Source: Betaproteobacteria bacterium
GTDB taxonomy: Bacteria; Pseudomonadota; Gammaproteobacteria; Burkholderiales; Burkholderiaceae_E
Assembly (NCBI GenBank): GCA_016868175.1
Contig: VGHO01000006.1
Location: 1-32,906 of the forward strand
Reading direction: 5' to 3'
Length of the DNA: 32,906 bases
Shown piece after piece: positions 21,740-32,906 of this stretch. The position numbers and the translations under genes were made by a program. Numbering within the stretch: position 1 is the first letter of the stretch; every line of letters starts with the position of its first letter. A model generated the notes under the pieces. That model saw only the letters and a list, made by a program, of their open reading frames with translations, was not told where the DNA came from and did no database searches.

Positions 21740-22830
21740 ACATGCCTGATCGTGCATCCGACGACGTCTCGAATCCGATGGGACTGATGGGGTTCGAGTT
21801 CGTGGAGTTCGCATCACCGCAACCCGGGGTGCTCGAGCCGCTCTTTGAGCAGATGGGTTTTGCACAGGTGGCGCAGCACCGGAGCAAGGACGTCGTGCTC
21901 TATCGCCAGGGTGAGATCAACTTCATCGTGAATCGCGAACCGCGCAGCCTCGCCGGCTACTTCGCGGCCGAGCACGGTCCGGGAGCCTGCGCGATGGCTT
22001 TTCGGGTGCGCGACTCGCACCACGCCTATGAACGCGCACTTGCACTTGGTGCGCAGCCGATCGAGGTGCCCACCGGGCCGATGGAACTCAAATTGCCTGC
22101 GATCAAGGGGATCGGCGGCGCTCCGCTCTACCTCATCGACCGCTTCGAAGACGGCAGGAGCATCTACGACATCGACTTCTCGTTTGTCGGCGAAGCCCAC
22201 CGCCGGCCTGCGGGCCACGGCCTGCTGCGGATCGACCACCTCACGCACAACGTCTACCGGGGGCGGATGGCGCACTGGGCATCCTTTTACGAGAGACTCT
22301 TCAACTTTCGCGAACTGCGCTACTTCGACATCAAGGGCGAGTACACAGGTCTGAGCAGCCGCGCGATGACCGCGCCCGACGGCATGATCCGCATTCCGCT
22401 CAACGAGGAGGCCGGACGCGGTGGCAGCGGCCAGATCGAGGAGTTCCTGATGCAGTTCAATGGCGAAGGGATCCAGCATATCGCGCTGCTCTGTGAGGAT
22501 CTGCCAACCGCGGTGGGCGCACTGAGGCGAGCCGGAGTACCGCTCATGCCGGCGCCCAATGCGCACTACTACGCGATGCTGGAGGAGCGTCTGCCGGGTC
22601 ATGGAGAGCCTGTCGACGTGCTGCGTGCGCACGGCATCCTGCTCGACGGCACCACCGCAGGCCACGAGCCACGGTTGCTGCTGCAGATCTTCAGTCAGCC
22701 GGTGCTCGGGCCGGTCTTCTTCGAATTCATCCAGCGCAAACGCGACGAAGGATTTGGCGAGGGCAACTTCAAGGCGCTTTTCGAGTCGATCGAACGCGAT
22801 CAGATCCGGCGCGGGACGCTACAGGTCTAG
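21736..22830 (+). CDS. hppD: 4-hydroxyphenylpyruvate dioxygenase
   Basis: 364 residues, the normal bacterial length. The enzyme converts 4-hydroxyphenylpyruvate and O2 to homogentisate and CO2 in tyrosine catabolism, using one Fe(II). The three expected iron ligands are present: His168 in [14 protein letters not shown], His248 in [10 protein letters not shown], and Glu330 in [11 protein letters not shown]. The C-terminal segment [18 protein letters not shown] is the family's closing helix over the active site. ATG at 21736 has AAAGGAG five bases upstream and overlaps the stop of a 40-residue ORF. No other homogentisate-pathway gene is in the window. The last 12 bp overlap the convergent YhgE-like gene. 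Confidence 0.96.
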
Positions 22831-24816
22831 CGCCGGCGGGATCCGGCGTCGCGGCCGGTAGTCCCACCGGCCGAAGTACGCGGCCACCATCAGAAACACT
22901 GCGGCCACTGCAAGCATCAGCATGAGCGGGGTGGCCCAGTTGCCCTCATAGGCTCCGAACATCGAGGCCTTGAGTCCCTTGACCACCCAGGTCATCGGCA
23001 GCCAGGGGCTGATCTCCGCGTAGAAGCTTCCGCTCAATTCCACCGGAAGGAGACCCCCTGAAGACGCCATCTGGATTGCGAGCAGGATCATTGCAAGCGC
23101 CTTGCCTGCGTCGCCCCAGATCCTGCTGAGGGCGATGACGATGAGGAGGAAGGCCAGCACCGAGACCAACATGCAGGCCGCGAAACCGAACGGGTCGGCA
23201 ATCTTCACATCGAGTACACACACGAGCACAAGAGCGAGCACCACAGCCTGCATGCACGCGACCAGCGCAGGGATCGACAATTTGCCGAGCAGCTTCGGCA
23301 TGCGTGCAAAGGGACGAAGCGCGAGAGCGATCGTTCGCGACCGCACGAGGAACGCAGCCACCCCAACGCCAAGCCACAGGCCGATCGGAACGATGTTGGG
23401 AGCCATACCGCTACCGTGGTTGGCAACCGGTGCGATGAGTTGCACTTGCGGAACCACCGACTGCGCAAGCCCCTCGGCGCTCCCCACGATGCGCGACCCC
23501 TGCGACGGCAGCGCACCCGCGAGCGCGTCAACCCCGGCCCCAAGGAGCACCACTTTCTGGCGAAGTTCCGCAAGTGCGAGTTCCAACTGCGCCTGCCCCT
23601 GACTCAGGGTGCTCCCCGCCAGAAGCAATCCGTTGGCACCCGCGGCCTCGGCGGGTATCGCCTCGGCAAGGCTGCGCAAACTGGCACGGTGGTCGCGGAT
23701 CCTCGAGGCGAGTTCCCGCGCCGACGCGTTGAGATGCGCGCTACCCTCGAGCAGCCTCTGGTGCATGCGAACGCTTCGATCGAGCCTGCGCTGCAATTCC
23801 TCGGTGTCGCTTTGCAAGGGATCGAAGGCGCCTGCCTGCAGCCCGGATTCGAGCTGCGAAGGCTCAAGTTCCTTGCGCAGCCCCTGGGCATGCCCCTGAA
23901 GCCTTCCGGCAATCTGCTCGAGTGCCACGATCTCCCGGTCGAGTTCCTGCTGTTCGCGGCTCAGACCCTCGGCCGCAAGGCGTACCAAACGCACCTCGGC
24001 AGGCGGAGGCATCGTGGATTCGGCTTCCCGGATGCCGCTCGCCGCACGTGCATAGTCCTGGCTGAGGCTGTCAACGCCGCCGTAGAGCTGGAGCGACGAT
24101 TGGCGCGCAGCACCCAGGCGCTCCTCCAGAGCGTCAAGCGCCTTGCGCATCTGGGCACTGGCCTGCTGAAGCTGCGCAAGTCCTGCGACAAGCCGACCGA
24201 GGGTTGCCGCCGACTCGGCAGACTCCTCGAGCACCACCGCCCAACGCCTTGTGTTGAGCGCGACGTTGATCTCCTCGCCGAGCGCCTTGGCAAACTGCGC
24301 CGCCAGTAGCGCACCCTCATAGTTGTTGCCCGCAGAGCTCAAGACCCTGAGTTCGGCGTCTCCAGCCCTTCGTCCTGCGATCGACTGCGCACTGAAACCC
24401 CCGGGAATCACGAGCGCAAAGGCAAGTTTTCCGCTGCGCACCAGCGCCTGGGCCTGCGCTTCGCTCTCGGGCTCAACGTAGGCGAACTGCTCCCGGGCGC
24501 GCAGTCGCGCCGAGAGTTCGGCGCCCAGGTTCACGCCCTGCCCCCGGGTGCTGCTGCCGAGGTCGAGATTCACGATGCCCACTGGCAGCGCGCGGCTGTT
24601 GGCCGCCGGGTCCCAGACGCCGCCTAGATAGATCAGGATGTAGACGCTCGGAATCAGCGCAACCAGAATGGCAGCCCAGCGCAGCCTGGCATCCTTGAAG
24701 TAACTGGCCGCCTCAACCGCGATTGCGATGCGACACTGGTCGAGCCAACCAGGCCGCGTCTGGCCACCCGGTCTTCTCCAAGGTTTTCGCACGGAGGGTG
24801 CGGGCGAGGATCGCAT
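22819..24816 (-). CDS. YhgE/Pip-type ABC-2 family membrane protein
   Basis: 665 residues from ATG 24816. After an N-terminal helix ([21 protein letters not shown]), a large extracytoplasmic region of about 400 residues begins with the YhgE/Pip fold ([13 protein letters not shown]). It continues as long Ala/Glu/Arg/Leu-rich coiled-coil segments. The C-terminal part has about five ABC-2-type helices, including [28 protein letters not shown] and [14 protein letters not shown], the last typical of the family. Relatives include phage-infection and type VII-associated proteins in Firmicutes and uncharacterised transport proteins in Proteobacteria. No ATPase gene is adjacent. Start is uncertain: GTG 24792, ATG 24816 and TTG 24834 are in frame and none has a good ribosome-binding site. 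Confidence 0.82.
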
Positions 24817-24991
24817 GGATCGCGGTAGGGTCAATTGGCAAGCGCGCTCTGAAGTCGTCACACTCCATCGTAAACGTGTAGTAGACCGCAGGTATCCGGC
24901 CTGGGTCACGTGCAAACCTCAACATACCGCGCCTCGTTGGTAAAGGACGCAAACGCTGGGCGGGCCCTTTCCTCAATCTTTCCACGATCAA

Positions 24992-25191
24992 GGAGTTCCG
25001 TATGAAACGATCCCTCGTTGCCGCATCGATCTGCCTGTTCTCGGGTGCCGCTCTCGCCGGCGACTGTGGTGGCGGCAAGATGAAGCCCACCGGAGTTCCG
25101 TATGAAACGATCCCTCGTTGCCGCATCGATCTGCCTGTTCTCGGGTGCCGCTCTCGCCGGCGACTGTGGTGGCGGCAAGATGAAGCCCACC
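24992..25191 (+). repeat. Exact 100-bp tandem duplication
   Basis: Bases 24992-25091 and 25092-25191 are identical. Each unit runs from the ribosome-binding site (GGAGTTCCGT) through the signal-peptide region to the sequence encoding GGGKMKPT of a small exported protein. The length is not a multiple of three, so only the second copy joins the gene's remaining codons in frame. Confidence 0.97.
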
Positions 25192-25371: not shown

Positions 25372-25599
25372 GTTCCTGCGATGAGTCAGGCCTTTGCGCG
25401 ATGGACGTGATCGTGGAAATCCACGAATGTCTTGTCCCCTGGATCACTTCCCCGCTGGTCCTTGCTAGTCATGCGTGCGAAGCGACCGTGACGCACCACG
25501 GGCCAGCAACCTTCCTGCCGATAGGAGCTTGACAGGGGGGTATCCGTCGCGAGTTGCGTGCCGGCGACCGATTCGGGTGCAAGAGCGGATAATCTCCGG
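25372..25599. other. Intergenic region upstream of the Wadjet operon
   Basis: About 230 bp with no convincing gene. It contains a near-perfect palindrome at 25411-25426, a second shorter inverted repeat at 25486-25501, and a full -35 consensus TTGACA at 25529-25534. A good -10 hexamer at the right distance is not evident (AGTTGC at 17 bases). GATAAT at 25588-25593 is too close to the ATG at 25600 to be an ordinary -10 for jetA. The jet promoter is probably here. Confidence 0.45.
25411..25426. promoter_or_regulatory. 16-bp palindrome upstream of jetA, possible operator
   Basis: TCGTGGAAATCCACGA has seven-base arms around a central AA. It lies 174 bases before the jetA ATG, in the space between the preceding hairpin and the TTGACA element. 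It is the most symmetric site in this region and could bind a dimeric repressor. No regulator gene is adjacent, so the function is a guess. Confidence 0.3.
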
Positions 25600-27054
25600 A
25601 TGCTACCCAGTTACGCCACGCTCGAAGCGCTTCGCCACGACCATCCTGCGTGGCGTCTTCTGAGGTCGGACCATGCCTCGTTGATCAGCAGCTTCCTGCA
25701 CCGTTGCTTCATCGCGCCCAACCAGCGCACCATTGCCGCGGTTGAACTTGCCGAAGCACTCGACGACGAGCTCTACACGCTTCGACTCCATTGGGGCGAG
25801 GATGCCTTTCCGCGCAGTGCCGCCGATTACCTCAACGACTGGTCCGCGCCCGACCGGGGATGGCTGCGCAAGTTCTACAAGTCCGGCACCGACGAGGCTC
25901 AGTTCGATCTCACGCCCGCGACCGAAAAGGCGATCGGCTGGCTTTCCCAGCTGAGCGAGCGGCAGTTTGTGGGGACCGAGTCGAGGCTGCTGATCCTCTT
26001 CGATCTTCTCAAACAGATGAGCGAAGGCAGCGAGGCCGATCCCGGGAAGCGGCTCGCCGAGTTGCAGCGAAAGCGCGCTGCGATCGACGAAGAGATCGCA
26101 CGGGTATCTGCGGGCGAGATCGTGCTCCTCGAAGACAGCGCACTCAAGGATCGCTTCCAGCAATTCACACAGGGTGCCCGGCAGTTGCTCGCCGACTTTC
26201 GCGAGGTGGAATTCAACTTCCGTCAGCTCGACCGGAGGATCCGCGAGCGCATCGCGCAGCGGGACGGCAGCAAGGGCGCACTGCTTGAGGACATCATGGG
26301 CGAGCGCGACGCAATTGCCGATTCGGACCAGGGTCGGAGCTTTCGTGCCTTCTGGGACTTCCTGCTCTCGAGCCGCCGGCAGGAGGAACTCGGTGAACTG
26401 CTCGACCGGGTACTTTCCCTGCCTGCAGTGGCTTCAACGAACCCAGACCCCCGCACCCGCCGGGTGCACTACGACTGGCTGGAGGCGGGTGAACACACCC
26501 AGCGCACTGTTGCAGCGCTTTCGCAGCAACTCCGGCGCTTCCTCGACGATCGGGCCTGGCTCGAGAATCGCCGGATCATCGAGCTGCTCCATGCGATCGA
26601 GGTGCATACGCTTGCGGTGCGCGAGGCCCCCCCGCCCACGCCTTTCATCGGGCTTGCCCCAGTGCATGCGGAAATTTCCCTTGCCACCGAACGACCGCTC
26701 TACACGCCTTCGACACGGCCCACACTCGAAGCCCTCACGGTGATGCTTGCTGCGGAAGACCTCGATCCTGCAGCGCTCTTCAACGCGGTGACGGTGGACC
26801 GCGATGCCGTGCGGCAACACATCGAGCATCGTCTTCAGGGAAGTAGCCAGGTCAGTCTGTGTGAACTCGTCGCGTCGAGACCGCTGCAGCACGGACTTGC
26901 CGAACTGCTCACCTACCTTCAACTCGGTACCGACGCCTTCAAGACCATCACCGACGAGCGGAGCCTCGAGCGGATCGCATGGGAATCGGTCACAAGCGCA
27001 GGCGAGCCGGTCAACCGTACCGCCACGCTTCCACGCGTGATCTTCGTCCGCTAG
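25600..27054 (+). CDS. jetA: Wadjet anti-plasmid protein JetA (DUF3375)
   Basis: 484 residues. The N terminus (YATLEALRHDHPAWRLLRSDHA) is the DUF3375 signature, and the helical body with KRLAELQRKRAAIDEEIARV matches the kleisin-like JetA subunit of type I Wadjet. JetA bridges the two JetC heads in an SMC-like complex (JetABC) that extrudes loops on small circular DNA, so that JetD can cleave it. ATG at 25600 is preferred over upstream non-ATG starts because family homology begins there; the ribosome-binding site is weak. First gene of the four-gene operon, with jetB starting a few bases after its stop. Nothing appears truncated. Confidence 0.92.
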   Translation: MLPSYATLEALRHDHPAWRLLRSDHASLISSFLHRCFIAPNQRTIAAVELAEALDDELYTLRLHWGEDAFPRSAADYLNDWSAPDRGWLRKFYKSGTDEAQFDLTPATEKAIGWLSQLSERQFVGTESRLLILFDLLKQMSEGSEADPGKRLAELQRKRAAIDEEIARVSAGEIVLLEDSALKDRFQQFTQGARQLLADFREVEFNFRQLDRRIRERIAQRDGSKGALLEDIMGERDAIADSDQGRSFRAFWDFLLSSRRQEELGELLDRVLSLPAVASTNPDPRTRRVHYDWLEAGEHTQRTVAALSQQLRRFLDDRAWLENRRIIELLHAIEVHTLAVREAPPPTPFIGLAPVHAEISLATERPLYTPSTRPTLEALTVMLAAEDLDPAALFNAVTVDRDAVRQHIEHRLQGSSQVSLCELVASRPLQHGLAELLTYLQLGTDAFKTITDERSLERIAWESVTSAGEPVNRTATLPRVIFVR

Positions 27055-27062
27055 GCTCGGGT

Positions 27063-28040
27063 TTGCCATCAACCGCCTCGGTCCCGTATGCGAAGAACCA
27101 GCCGTGCGCCCGCACTCCGCCCAAGCCCGCAACACCCCGAGGCAAACGCGGAATTTGCCGCACCGCACGATTTCGCCGCCCTCGCGCAACACGGTGGCGC
27201 AGCGTCCCACCTCCGCACGATTTCGCCGCCCTCGCGCAACACGGTGGCGCAGCGTCCCACCTTTTGGGCGCAAGAGCGCAATCCACGGCGGCGGCTTCGG
27301 CTTCGGGCTCGTCATCGCCCGAAGCGCCCTGGGGGCCTGCCGCCGGTTTCGGGGCTTCGGAACTTCCGGGGCTGTTGATCCGGTTACTCAAGACAGTGAT
27401 CTATCGCGACGACGACGAACGGACCTGGTCGGAGTTGCTCCGGAGGCAGTCGGCGGTGCGCGACTTCATGGGCCAATTGCACCTCGAACTCGCGATCGAT
27501 GAGGCGGAGGGCTACGCATTCCTGCGTTCGCGCGAGGACGGCCCCGAGGAGCCCGAGCGCAAGATTCCGAGGCTGATCGCCCGGCGGCCCTTGTCGTTTC
27601 CGGTGAGCCTCCTTCTTGCCCTGCTGCGCAAACGGCTGGCCGAATTCGACGCAATCGGCGGCGATACCCGCCTGATCGTGAGCCGCGACGACATCGTTGA
27701 ATTGCTGAGGATCTTCCTTCCGGAGGGCCCCAATGAGGCGCGCATGATCGATCAGATCGAATCGCATGTTCAGCGGGTGGTGGAGCTTGGTTTCCTGCGC
27801 AAGCTCAAGCCGGGGAGCGACGCATCCTCTGCAGCTGCGCATTTCGAGGTGCGCCGTATCCTCAAGGCCTTTGTGGATGCGCAGTGGCTGGCCGAGTTCG
27901 ACGTGCAGCTTGCGCGCTACCGAGCCGTGCTCAGCGATGGCGCGGACACCCCGGTGGCCCACAACTTAGCACCCGCTGGCGCGGGCGCACCAGCGGCTGC
28001 CCACGACGAGCCCGGTGGCGGCGACCCTCGCCATGCTTGA
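27063..28040 (+). CDS. jetB: Wadjet protein JetB (DUF4194), with disrupted 5' region
   Basis: As drawn, 325 residues from a TTG nine bases after the jetA stop. The DUF4194 core is intact: LLIRLLKTVIYRDDDERTW, EAEGYAFLRSRE, RRPLSFPVSLLLALLRKRLA and FEVRRILKAFVDAQWLAEFD. JetB is the winged-helix KITE-like subunit binding JetA. The N-terminal roughly 95 residues are low complexity. An exact 50-bp duplication (27163-27262) lies in them. With one copy, ATG at 27088 would read straight into the core (300 residues). With two, that ATG frame is lost and only weak non-ATG starts (TTG 27063 or TTG 27264) reach the core. The gene may therefore be poorly expressed or switched off. The last eight bases overlap jetC. 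Confidence 0.82.
   Translation: MPSTASVPYAKNQPCARTPPKPATPRGKRGICRTARFRRPRATRWRSVPPPHDFAALAQHGGAASHLLGARAQSTAAASASGSSSPEAPWGPAAGFGASELPGLLIRLLKTVIYRDDDERTWSELLRRQSAVRDFMGQLHLELAIDEAEGYAFLRSREDGPEEPERKIPRLIARRPLSFPVSLLLALLRKRLAEFDAIGGDTRLIVSRDDIVELLRIFLPEGPNEARMIDQIESHVQRVVELGFLRKLKPGSDASSAAAHFEVRRILKAFVDAQWLAEFDVQLARYRAVLSDGADTPVAHNLAPAGAGAPAAAHDEPGGGDPRHA
27163..27262 (+). repeat. Exact 50-bp tandem duplication in the 5' part of jetB
   Basis: Bases 27163-27212 and 27213-27262 are identical, each beginning CCGCACGATTTCGCC and ending AGCGTCCCACCT. Fifty is not a multiple of three; the duplication uncouples ATG 27088 from the DUF4194 frame. Confidence 0.97.
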
Positions 28041-31000
28041 GGCCACCCTCCAGCTCGATTTTCTCGGCGACGACACCCGATCGGGATTCCGCCTCGCGCG
28101 GCTCGAGGTCCTCAACTGGGGGACTTTCGATGCACAGGTCTGGACCCTGGTTCTTGACGGGCGCAATGCGCTGCTCACCGGCGATATCGGCTCCGGAAAA
28201 TCCACCCTCGTCGATGCGATCACCACCTTGCTGGTTCCCGCGCATCGGGTGGCCTACAACAAGGCGGCCGGCGCCGATTTTCGCGAGCGAAGCCTGCGCT
28301 CCTACGTGCTCGGGCACTACAAGTCCGAACGGCTTGAAACTGCAGGTTCGGCCAAACCCGTTTCGCTGCGGGATGCGCGCAACTACTCGGTGATCCTCGC
28401 GGTCTTTCACAACGCAGCGTACGACCAGACGGTGAGCCTGGCGCAGGTCTTCTGGCTCAAGGAAGCCCAGGGGCAGCCCGCGAGGCTATACCTGGGAGTC
28501 GATCGAGCGATCTCGATTGCGGGCGAACTTTCCGGCTTCGGTCCCGACGTGCAAGCGCTTCGCAAGCGCTTGCGTGGCCTTGGCGCGGAAGTGCACGACA
28601 GCTTTCCGCCCTACGGCGCCTGGTTTCGGCGTCGGTTCGGTATCGAAAACGATCAGGCGCTCGAGCTGTTCCATCAAACCGTCTCGATGAAGTCGGTTGG
28701 GAATCTCACCGACTTTGTTCGGCTGCACATGCTCGAGGCCTTCGAGGTTGCGCCGCGAATCCAGGCGCTGATCAGTCACTTCGACGACCTCGACCGCGCG
28801 CATCAGTCGGTGGTGAAGGCGCGCCAGCAACTGCAGCTGCTCACGCCAATGGTCGAGGACTGCACCGCGCACGGTGATCTTCATGCCGCAATTGCCCATG
28901 CGCGGCAGTGCCGGGATGCAATAGCCGCCTACTTCGCAGGTCTGCGGGTCGTTTTGATCGACGCCCGCGCAAAGCAGCTCACTGCGGAACTCGAGGAAAC
29001 AGCGGCGCATCTGGCGCAGCACGAAAAGTGGCGCAGCGAGCATGCCGAGCGCGTCGAGGAACTCCGCCGCGCGATCCTTGATCAGGGCGGAGATCGGCTC
29101 GAGCGTATCGCCGCCGAGATCCTCCGGCGCCTGACCGCGCAGCGCGACGCACGCAGGGTGAAGGCAGAGCGCTACGCCCAACTTGCGGGCCTCCTCAATG
29201 CGGCGCTGCCCGAAGATGCCCTCAGCTTCGCCACACAGCGCACCCGGATCACGAGCCTGCGTGCGGCGATGCTGCAGCAGGAGGCCGAGCTCCACGGCAC
29301 GATCACCGAGCAAGGCGTTACCCTCCGACAGGCGCGCAACGACGAGGAGGCTCTCGGCAGGGAGATCGAAGGCTTGCGCCGGCGCCGCAGCAACATCGAG
29401 GAGCCACAGATACGGATCCGCGAAATGCTCTGCAGCCACCTTGGATTCCCGCCGGATGAGCTTCCCTTCGCGGGTGAGCTCATTCAGGTGCGTGAGGAGG
29501 AACGTGACTGGGAAGGGACCGCCGAAAGGCTTCTGCGTGGGTTCGGGCTTTCGCTGCTGGTGCCTGAGGCGTTATACAGGCCGCTTGCAGAATGGGTGGA
29601 TGCACAGCACCTCGCTGGCCGGCTCGTGTACTTCCCCCTTCGGCCACGCAAATCGGGCACCATGCCGGCCTTGCATCCCGACTCGCTGGTGCACAAGCTT
29701 GCGGTGCGCAGCGAATCACCGCACAAGCCCTGGATCGAGCGCGAGCTTGCGCAGCGCTTCGACCTTGCGTGTTGCCTCAACCTCGAGCAGTTCCGTCGTG
29801 AGGCGCGCGCCATCACGAGAGCGGGTCAGATCAAGGACCCGGGCGGCCGTCATGACAAGGACGACCGCTTTCACATCGATGACCGCAGTCGCTATGTGCT
29901 GGGTTGGAGCAACCAGGCGAAGGTCGAGGCGCTTCTGGCGCGGCAACGCGGCGCAGCGCTCCGCAGCGCCGCATTGGCGGGAACGCTTGCCGGGCTGCAG
30001 GAAGCCGGGCGCAAGCTGCGTGGCCTGCTCGATGCGGCAACCCGCCTGGAGGAAGTGTCGAGTTTTGAGGAACTCGACTGGGCGGGCGCTGCTGCCGCGA
30101 TCGCAGGACTCGAGGACGAGCGAAGGGTGCTCGAGGCGGCCTCCGATCACCTTGCGCGGCTTAACCGCTTGCTCCACGCGACGCAGCGAAAACTTCAGCT
30201 TGCCGAGTCGCAACTCAATACAACCCGCGAGAACAGGGCGCGCCTGCAGCAGCGTCTGTCGGATCTCGAGGAGACACGCAGGCAAGCCGTGGCTGTCGAG
30301 TCGAGTCTCGTGATCAACGAGGCGCTGCACAAGGCGCTCGAGGCGATGCGCGAGGAGGCGCTCGGCGCGCAGATCCTGAGCCTTGAGCATTGCACCGCAC
30401 GCGAGCAGGCAATGCGTGATTGGCTGGTGGCGCGAATCGACCGCCAGGAGGTGGCCCTCAAGGGACTGGGCGAGCGCATCGTCCGCGCGATGGTGGCGTT
30501 CAAGGAACGGTTCAAGCTCGAGACCTCCGAAATCGATGCGTCTGTCGAAGCGGGATTCGAGTACGCACGGCTGCTCGAGCAACTGCGGCGCGATGATCTT
30601 CCGCGCTTTGTCGAGCGCTTCAAGGAACTGCTCAACGTGAACACGATCAACGAGATCGCGCACTTCAACGCCCAACTGGCCCGAGAACGCGAGACGATCC
30701 GCGAGAGGATCGCGAAGATCAACGCGTCGATGGGCATGATCGACTACAACCCGTCCCGCTATATCGTCCTCGAGGCCCAGGCGAGCGGCGATCCGGAGAT
30801 TCGTGACTTCCAGCAGGACCTGCGTGCCTGCACCGAGGGGGCGCTTGGCGGCGCCGAGGATCTGCAGTACTCGGAGATTCGCTTCCTGCGCGTGAAGGCA
30901 ATCATCGATCGGCTGCGTGGTCGCGAAGGTCTGTCGGAGCAGGACCGCCGCTGGACGGCCAAGGTCACCGATGTGCGCAACTGGTTTGTCTTCGGCGCAA

Positions 31001-31437
31001 GCGAGCGTTGGCGCGAGGACCACACCGAATACGAGCACTACTCCGACTCGGGGGGAAAATCGGGCGGACAGAAGGAGAAACTCGCCTACACCGTGCTTGC
31101 GGCAAGCCTTGCCTACCAGTTCGGCCTCGAGTGGGGCGCGGTGCGCTCGCGATCGTTCCGTTTTGTAGTGATCGACGAGGCCTTTGGTCGAGGCTCCGAC
31201 GACTCGGCGCGCTACGCGCTGAGGCTCTTCGAGCAACTCGGACTCCAGTTGCTGATCGTGACACCGCTGCAGAAGATCCACATCATCGAACCCTTTGTGG
31301 CGAGCGTGGGCTTCGTGCACAACGAGAACGGGCGCAACTCCAGGTTGCGCAACCTCAGCATCGAGGAGTACCGCGCCGGACGCAGCACCTCCCGGATCCC
31401 GACCTTCGGGGCAGTCACGACGACGCAGGAGGGTTGA
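28033..31437 (+). CDS. jetC: Wadjet protein JetC, SMC/MukB-like ATPase
   Basis: 1134 residues. An N-terminal head half has RLEVLNWGTFD and Walker A GDIGSGKST (50-58). Long coiled-coil arms surround a central hinge-like globular region (about 480-640). The C-terminal head half has the ABC signature SGGKSGGQKEK (1006-1016), Walker B FVVIDEAF with Asp1048 and Glu1049, and TPLQKIHIIEPF. This is the motor of the Wadjet complex, which reels in plasmid DNA by ATP-driven loop extrusion. ATG at 28033 overlaps the jetB stop (ATGCTTGA); a GTG at 28015 is an alternative adding six residues. All catalytic motifs are intact. Confidence 0.94.
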   Translation: MLEATLQLDFLGDDTRSGFRLARLEVLNWGTFDAQVWTLVLDGRNALLTGDIGSGKSTLVDAITTLLVPAHRVAYNKAAGADFRERSLRSYVLGHYKSERLETAGSAKPVSLRDARNYSVILAVFHNAAYDQTVSLAQVFWLKEAQGQPARLYLGVDRAISIAGELSGFGPDVQALRKRLRGLGAEVHDSFPPYGAWFRRRFGIENDQALELFHQTVSMKSVGNLTDFVRLHMLEAFEVAPRIQALISHFDDLDRAHQSVVKARQQLQLLTPMVEDCTAHGDLHAAIAHARQCRDAIAAYFAGLRVVLIDARAKQLTAELEETAAHLAQHEKWRSEHAERVEELRRAILDQGGDRLERIAAEILRRLTAQRDARRVKAERYAQLAGLLNAALPEDALSFATQRTRITSLRAAMLQQEAELHGTITEQGVTLRQARNDEEALGREIEGLRRRRSNIEEPQIRIREMLCSHLGFPPDELPFAGELIQVREEERDWEGTAERLLRGFGLSLLVPEALYRPLAEWVDAQHLAGRLVYFPLRPRKSGTMPALHPDSLVHKLAVRSESPHKPWIERELAQRFDLACCLNLEQFRREARAITRAGQIKDPGGRHDKDDRFHIDDRSRYVLGWSNQAKVEALLARQRGAALRSAALAGTLAGLQEAGRKLRGLLDAATRLEEVSSFEELDWAGAAAAIAGLEDERRVLEAASDHLARLNRLLHATQRKLQLAESQLNTTRENRARLQQRLSDLEETRRQAVAVESSLVINEALHKALEAMREEALGAQILSLEHCTAREQAMRDWLVARIDRQEVALKGLGERIVRAMVAFKERFKLETSEIDASVEAGFEYARLLEQLRRDDLPRFVERFKELLNVNTINEIAHFNAQLARERETIRERIAKINASMGMIDYNPSRYIVLEAQASGDPEIRDFQQDLRACTEGALGGAEDLQYSEIRFLRVKAIIDRLRGREGLSEQDRRWTAKVTDVRNWFVFGASERWREDHTEYEHYSDSGGKSGGQKEKLAYTVLAASLAYQFGLEWGAVRSRSFRFVVIDEAFGRGSDDSARYALRLFEQLGLQLLIVTPLQKIHIIEPFVASVGFVHNENGRNSRLRNLSIEEYRAGRSTSRIPTFGAVTTTQEG

Positions 31438-31438
31438 G

Positions 31439-32906
<1,468 letters not shown>

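What the first reader, a model, noticed from the sequence alone, without database searches (positions are those of the whole stretch)
27063..28040. jetB of a Wadjet system carries an exact 50-bp tandem duplication that breaks its ATG-initiated frame
Bases 27163-27212 are repeated perfectly at 27213-27262. With one copy removed, ATG 27088 reads without interruption into the DUF4194 core (300 residues). With both copies, that frame stops after 96 residues and only TTG starts (27063 or 27264) reach the core. A perfect tandem duplication is unstable and can revert by slippage or recombination, so the anti-plasmid system could be reversibly switched off or attenuated, which would be a phase-variable Wadjet. 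Wadjet limits uptake of useful plasmids, so a switch would make sense. This is a hypothesis; an assembly artefact is the main alternative.
Basis: partly seen in the sequence, partly recalled or inferred. Interest (0 to 1): 0.72.

Follow-up and report, generated by a model that had tools for sequence, protein, structure and literature searches.

The report
Tandem duplication before Wadjet jetB core
A bacterial anti-plasmid gene cluster carries a perfect 50-base repeat just in front of the conserved part of one gene; it is real in the sequence, but it looks like one of many recent random duplications in this genome and not like a purpose-built on/off switch.

Summary
Bases 27163-27212 are repeated exactly at 27213-27262, inside a complete type I Wadjet operon (jetA-jetB-jetC-jetD). 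The ATG 27088 frame does stop after 96 residues. The switch reading gains no support. (1) The folded JetB core begins at 27360. In 76 relatives JetB starts 10-32 residues before that point, so the repeat lies upstream of everything conserved. TTG 27264 (32 residues before the core) stays open, with the same 50 bases in front of it whatever the copy number. (2) The repeat is one of 19 tandem duplications (45 bp or more, 95% or more identical) in 1.36 Mb of this genome, another being an exact 100-bp one 2 kb away; a same-genus genome has none in 0.37 Mb. (3) None of 80 GTDB relatives scanned has it. (4) The junction has no homology, so loss should be easy and re-gain rare. Lengths divisible by three (11 of 17 others) and mostly non-synonymous copy differences suggest real duplications, without proving it. 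An attenuating frame break therefore stays possible (about one in four).

The parts
25558..27054 (+). jetA (DUF3375, kleisin); likely start ATG 25600 (inferred), stop 27052-27054
   Evidence: PF11855 E 1.6e-142; PADLOC JetA1 E 1.4e-208, match from residue 18; ORF
27055..27359 (+). Enlarged G+C-rich (70%) spacer or disordered tail between the jetA stop and the JetB core: 305 bp, against 11-202 bp in 77 relatives
27163..27212 (+). copy 1 of the exact 50-bp tandem duplication
27213..27262 (+). copy 2 of the exact 50-bp tandem duplication (in frame with the JetB core)
27088..27378 (+). 96-codon ORF from ATG 27088, which leaves the JetB frame because of the duplication
27264..28040 (+). jetB from its most likely present start, TTG 27264 (258 aa; the start is inferred); folded core from 27360
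   Evidence: PF13835 and JetB1; start-position survey; AlphaFold2 core from residue 33
28033..31437 (+). jetC (SMC, MukB-like), likely start ATG 28033
   Evidence: PADLOC JetC1 E 0
31439..32746 (+). jetD (Toprim nuclease); likely start TTG 31439 behind AGGAGG at 31427-31432
   Evidence: JetD_C and DUF3322; PADLOC JetD1; sequence
24992..25191 (+). second exact tandem duplication (2 x 100 bp); the downstream copy keeps its own ATG 25102 and an open 77-aa ORF without a Pfam match

Best explanation
A recent tandem duplication, apparently private to this genome, in the enlarged disordered leader of jetB within an otherwise complete type I Wadjet operon. It is one product of a genome-wide habit of forming short tandem duplications. 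JetB is most likely translated from TTG 27264 (or another start close to the core), so the folded KITE domain is made with or without the second copy, and the effect is nil or a modest change in translation. The copy can be lost by replication slippage but not readily regained, so it is a transient polymorphism, not an evolved switch. Shown: the repeat, the intact operon, the core boundary, the relatives' start positions and the excess in the sampled part of the genome. Inferred: the TTG start, near-neutrality and instability.
For: The core begins at 27360 and residues 7-30 of the TTG 27264 protein are predicted disordered (pLDDT under 50). 76 relatives start 10-32 residues before that point and are 208-239 aa long. 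Among matches in 399 sampled order-level genomes, only the window's own reaches the first 14 residues encoded by copy 2. TTG 27264 has the same 50 bases upstream with one copy or two. The same operon appears to start jetD with a TTG. The genome sample has 19 tandem duplications in 1,363,980 bases, against 0 in 369,895 (G042, same genus), 0 in 68,074 (G041, same genus), 1 in 400,000 (G032, same family) and 1 in 781,578 (80 GTDB loci). The other in-window one leaves a 77-aa ORF open. Reality of the set: 11 of 17 periods outside the window divisible by three, P=0.008, or 11 of 19 with the window, P=0.024; 7 of 11 copy differences inside coding frames are non-synonymous. The junction shows no homology.
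Against: TTG 27264 has no Shine-Dalgarno sequence and lies 209 nt after the jetA stop, while relatives' median is 23 nt and the 95th percentile 39. The JetB-frame codons from 27264 to 27359 score -5.5, like a wrong frame (mean -6.2, sd 4.4), while another frame scores +5.0. That tail has net charge 0 and no acidic-Phe motif, whereas 77 of 78 relatives have a negative tail. Another exact duplication in this genome appears to break a gene: an acyltransferase split by the 91-bp repeat in L194, one half matching PF01553 just above and the other just below the curated cut-off.
Confidence: 0.5

Rival explanations
1. Frame break: the ancestral one-copy gene started at ATG 27088 and made a 300-aa JetB whose tail carries a motif that contacts JetD. 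The duplication throws this start out of frame and leaves only weak TTG starts, so Wadjet is attenuated in two-copy cells and restored when a copy is lost.
For: ATG 27088 lies 33 nt after the jetA stop, within the relatives' usual range. The 27088-27212 frame scores +2.2, like gene N-termini (mean 3.0, sd 6.6) and above wrong frames (mean -7.7, sd 5.3). The tail holds EF and DF; two such pairs arise in 0.46% of shuffles (post hoc), and [DE]F is enriched in relatives' tails, 18 of 74 against a shuffle mean of 4.2. A review reports that JetD contacts an IFDR motif at the JetB N-terminus (PMC10586767, section 7). No forward frame of the 305 bp holds a stop, which is so for 0 of 51 same-strand spacers of 200-400 bp.
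Against: It needs a 74-residue tail where 76 relatives have 10-32. The 41-residue tail has no convincing relative in 399 sampled order-level genomes: 25 other genomes match at E up to 0.1, best 0.0029; only one of the 25 also has a JetB match, on another contig. The absence of stops is largely explained by base composition (P 0.26 in an order-1 simulation). There is no Shine-Dalgarno sequence before ATG 27088.
Confidence: 0.27
2. Assembly artefact: overlapping contig ends or strain variants were joined end to end, and the cell carries one copy.
For: The genome is a 353-contig draft. It has a strong excess of two-copy tandem repeats not seen in samples of two same-genus genomes, and lengths of exactly 50 and 100 lie 2 kb apart. 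Most junctions are blunt: 14 of 19 have 0-1 bp of homology, with no Ku gene detected. Two duplications lie in the gene that holds the genome's only YgbB (IspF) match, and by spacing its 132-bp one is absent from two same-genus genomes.
Against: 11 of 17 other periods are divisible by three, P=0.008, including both in the IspD-IspF gene; an assembler does not know the reading frame. 7 of 11 copy differences inside coding frames are non-synonymous, unlike ordinary strain variants. Composition of the contig is typical of the genome.
Confidence: 0.18
3. N-terminal remodelling: in the two-copy form JetB starts at TTG 27063, 8 nt after the jetA stop, and gains a 99-residue basic tail; the duplication created this frame.
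For: The frame is open, its spacing to jetA is typical, and copy 2 still supplies a DF pair.
Against: The tail is strongly basic (+12) where relatives are acidic, and far longer than in any of 76 relatives. No Shine-Dalgarno sequence.
Confidence: 0.05

Closest known systems
Type I Wadjet (JetABCD / MksBEFG / EptABCD)
   Same: All four genes in order, each with its best match to type I PADLOC models; the JetB model's best fold matches are JetB of P. aeruginosa PA14 (8dk1) and E. coli (8as8), E 1.8e-8 and 8.3e-8, though with low TM-scores
   Different: An enlarged stretch between jetA and the JetB core (305 bp against 11-202 bp in 77 relatives) carrying a 50-bp tandem duplication
Pneumococcal capsule phase variation by spontaneous tandem duplication (cap8E/wchA, tts; Waite 2001, 2003)
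   Same: A tandem duplication changes the reading frame of one gene and could be lost precisely
   Different: There, the titles report phase variation; here no variation, reversion or phenotype is known, and the duplication lies outside the conserved domain. Seen only as passages and reference titles in PMC4022640
[quoted passage not shown] coli
   Same: Gives the expected route by which one copy would be lost (passages of PMC8378479)
   Different: A plasmid assay with engineered repeats, not a natural locus

Membership tests
Type I Wadjet | JetA (DUF3375), JetB (DUF4194), JetC (SMC ATPase), JetD (DUF3322 + JetD_C/Toprim) in one operon | tested here: met
   jetB-jetC overlap and jetC-jetD abut, jetA-jetB are 305 bp apart to the core
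Type I Wadjet | Type I rather than II or III | tested here: met
   Best PADLOC models are JetA1, JetB1, JetC1, JetD1; JetC2 only at E 0.00037
Type I Wadjet | JetB KITE core complete | tested here: met
   DUF4194 1-165 of 165; aligned with 41 relatives at 54-62% identity; confident core from residue 33
Type I Wadjet | Restricts plasmids | not testable with these tools
   needs a transformation assay
Phase-variable locus | A repeat whose copy number changes the reading frame | tested here: inconclusive
   True for ATG 27088, not for TTG 27264
Phase-variable locus | Copy number varies within the population | not testable with these tools
   no reads available
Phase-variable locus | Repeat retained or recurrent in relatives | tested here: not met
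   No JetB in the three same-genus genomes searched, one of them 62% complete; the tandem scan of the 80 GTDB jetB loci found one repeat of 45 bp or more at 95% identity, L112 6772-6867, downstream of its jetB
Phase-variable locus | Both directions frequent (short homologous units or a recombinase) | tested here: not met
   Two copies only, junction homology 0 bp; two 10-nt inverted pairs only

The most novel reading that the evidence does not exclude
A contingency-controlled Wadjet: the two-copy form lacks the JetB tail that engages the JetD nuclease, so most cells accept plasmids while slippage to one copy continually seeds restricting cells, in a lineage whose high tandem-duplication rate keeps regenerating such states.
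Probability: 0.06. Interest if true: 0.75.

Novelty: new member of a known kind. Interest (0 to 1): 0.3.

Why it matters
For Wadjet the finding is mostly a caution: a frame break counted from an annotated ATG is not a gene break when the folded domain starts later. If the repeat did control the JetB tail, it would give a natural test of whether the JetB N-terminus is needed to activate JetD. The unplanned result, a genome with an apparent excess of nearly blunt tandem duplications, even inside an isoprenoid-synthesis gene, may be the more useful lead, either as a mutational habit or as a warning about such assemblies.

Tried and rejected
Rejected: a mobile or repeated insert as the source of the long jetA-jetB stretch (no second place better than E 0.12 in the genome). 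A sigma-70 promoter or terminator in the stretch (none found). A foreign contig (composition typical). Ku-dependent end joining as origin (no Ku match in four genomes of the genus). A conserved N-terminal extension of JetB. Codon scores as decider of the start: ambiguous. My first reading that all in-gene duplications are in frame was partly circular, because a frame-breaking repeat ends the ORF; on checking, the 91-bp repeat in L194 appears to split an acyltransferase and the 56-bp one sits at a truncated acetyltransferase.

No close relative: the jetA-jetB stretch was not found in three same-genus genomes. The closest JetB proteins are 57-69% identical in the best segment (80 GTDB loci kept of 530); the best in family and order genomes reach 62% and 67% and in plasmids 62% (DNA search). 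Viral contigs gave no relative.

Literature: Wadjet with phase variation gave one review using the two terms in separate contexts (listing and passages); 'defence system' + 'phase variable' + 'tandem duplication' gave none; Wadjet + MAG + tandem repeat gave three, seen for this question only as a listing. Of two searches on repeat deletion one gave none and one listed eight of 20 papers, of which I read passages of one. Searches are listings from which I opened only the papers named in the report.

Rows dropped: one search used 76 of 80 GTDB loci for start positions (L107 has no placed jetA, L095 no start, L112 and L141 only starts more than 30 nt before the jetA stop) and 77 for the jetA gap (L107, and L095 and L141 with negative gaps, left out). 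My start rule takes the most upstream ATG from 30 nt before the jetA stop onward, other start codons only if there is no ATG. In one search the G041 rows were false hits on runs of N; one search repeats the count without N. One search lists 13 copy differences; two that lie partly outside an ORF are not in the 11, and repeats L022 15536, L053 and L197 were not classified. L035 (a repeat with a third copy) was kept; without it the count is 5 of 9. The structure model used 41 of the 76 relatives. The own-genome sample is the 66 lowest-numbered contigs (longest first in the tables), in whole or part, not a random draw.

Full report
What is there. The 50 bases at 27163-27212 are repeated without change at 27213-27262, and the genome record agrees. 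They lie between jetA and the core of jetB in a complete type I Wadjet operon: jetA (DUF3375), jetB (DUF4194), jetC (SMC ATPase) and jetD (DUF3322 and JetD_C), all best matched by type I PADLOC models. The window is contig C6 of a 353-contig, 2.95-Mb draft genome, 93% complete.

Where JetB begins. I placed the jetA stop and the JetB core in relatives. In 76 of 80 GTDB loci, JetB starts 10-32 residues (median 21) before the residue aligned with window 27360, and the protein is 208-239 aa long; the stretch from the jetA stop to that residue is 11-202 bp in 77 loci. Thirty-three further loci from the family, the order and a plasmid, some of them repeats of the first set, show the same pattern; in one the jetA stop lies 821 bp away, and in the plasmid locus my script found no start, although its record places jetB 4 bp after jetA and 212 aa long. 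In the window the stretch is 305 bp. An AlphaFold2 model on 42 sequences (the window and 41 of the 76 relatives) folds confidently from residue 33 of the TTG 27264 protein, which is base 27360; residues 7-30 score below 50. Its best fold matches are JetB of P. aeruginosa and E. coli, then MukE, with low TM-scores overall. The repeat therefore lies wholly outside the conserved, folded protein.

Which start is used. Three candidates remain. TTG 27264 gives a 32-residue tail, the top of the relatives' range, and because the repeat is a tandem one, the 50 bases in front of it are the same whatever the copy number. It has no Shine-Dalgarno sequence and lies far from jetA (209 nt). ATG 27088 has the commonest start codon (by a rule of mine that prefers ATG) and the usual distance from jetA (33 nt), but needs a 74-residue tail and, with two copies, leaves the frame. 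TTG 27063 reaches the core only with two copies and gives a 99-residue basic tail. jetD in the same operon appears to start at TTG 31439 behind AGGAGG, so TTG starts are plausible here. Codon scores do not decide: 27088-27212 scores +2.2 and 27264-27359 scores -5.5 (another frame of the latter +5.0), against 3.0 (sd 6.6, 41 codons) and 2.2 (sd 5.5, 32 codons) for gene N-termini. The stretch has no stop in any forward frame, which its base composition alone would give about one time in four.

A review states that JetD contacts an IFDR motif at the N-terminus of JetB (PMC10586767, section 7 read; the primary paper is not held). Relatives' tails are acidic in 77 of 78 cases, and 18 of 74 distinct tails hold [DE]F, against 4.2 expected from shuffles. 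The ATG 27088 frame holds EF and DF, the second inside the repeat unit; two such pairs occur in 0.46% of shuffles of that peptide. I looked for this after seeing the relatives, so it is suggestive only. If this is the JetD-binding tail, the duplication would cut it off from its ATG.

Genome-wide context. I scanned 81 stretches of this genome (1,363,980 bases, 46%) for tandem copies of 45 bp or more at 95% identity or more and found 19, two of them in the window. The same scan found 0 in 369,895 bases of a same-genus genome, 0 in 68,074 of another, 1 in 400,000 of a family member, and 1 in 781,578 across 80 GTDB loci. So duplications of this kind are unusually common here, and jetB is not singled out. 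Ten of the 19 junctions have no homology, and 14 have at most one base. No Ku gene was found.

Real or artefact. For real: 11 of the 17 duplications outside the window have periods divisible by three, P=0.008 (11 of 19 with the window, P=0.024), and 7 of 11 copy differences inside coding frames change the amino acid, whereas strain variants joined by mistake should be mostly silent (rule of thumb, recalled). For artefact: the excess is confined to this assembly among those sampled, the junctions are mostly blunt, and two duplications lie in the gene with the only YgbB (IspF) match of the genome, the 132-bp one being absent from two same-genus genomes by spacing. I put real at about four to one.

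Why not a switch. The 50-bp repeat can be lost by slippage, as shown for 101-bp repeats in E. coli (PMC8378479, passages). Going back from one copy to two would need a new duplication without flanking homology. The scan of 80 GTDB loci shows no such repeat before jetB, the three same-genus genomes searched lack the gene, and the leading start candidate is not affected. The nearest precedent is pneumococcal capsule variation by spontaneous duplication, seen here in passages and reference titles of PMC4022640. Spontaneous loss of Wadjet is known as a large deletion in Clostridium cellulovorans (PMC12287153, passages) and as a null mutation in Mycobacterium smegmatis (PMC10586767, passages), not as phase variation in anything I found.

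Verdict. The best reading is a private, unstable, probably near-neutral duplication in the jetB leader (0.50), then an attenuating frame break of an ATG 27088 gene (0.27), an assembly artefact (0.18), and remodelling from TTG 27063 (0.05).

Noticed in passing
window 24992-25191: A second exact tandem duplication (2 x 100 bp) covering a possible ribosome-binding site and the first 30 codons of a small ORF that looks like a secreted protein (by eye); the downstream copy leaves a 77-aa ORF open (ATG 25102; no Pfam match).
   Followed up: yes
L002-L061 and L187-L206 (own genome): With the window, 19 tandem duplications of 47-201 bp in 1.36 Mb, mostly with blunt junctions, against 0-1 in samples of other genomes: a possible tandem-duplication mutator or a peculiarity of the assembly.
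   Followed up: partly
L194 8628-10448 (- strand): An IspD-IspF fusion gene, holding the only YgbB match of the genome, with two in-frame internal tandem duplications (132 and 201 bp); spacing in two same-genus genomes indicates that the 132-bp one is absent there.
   Followed up: partly
L194 8064-8245 and 2431-2542: Exact 91-bp and 56-bp tandem duplications that appear to break an acyltransferase gene and an acetyltransferase gene.
   Followed up: partly
window 31427-31441: jetD appears to start with TTG 31439 behind a perfect AGGAGG.
   Followed up: partly
window 22819-24915 (- strand): A YhgE/Pip-type membrane protein gene upstream of the Wadjet operon.
   Followed up: no
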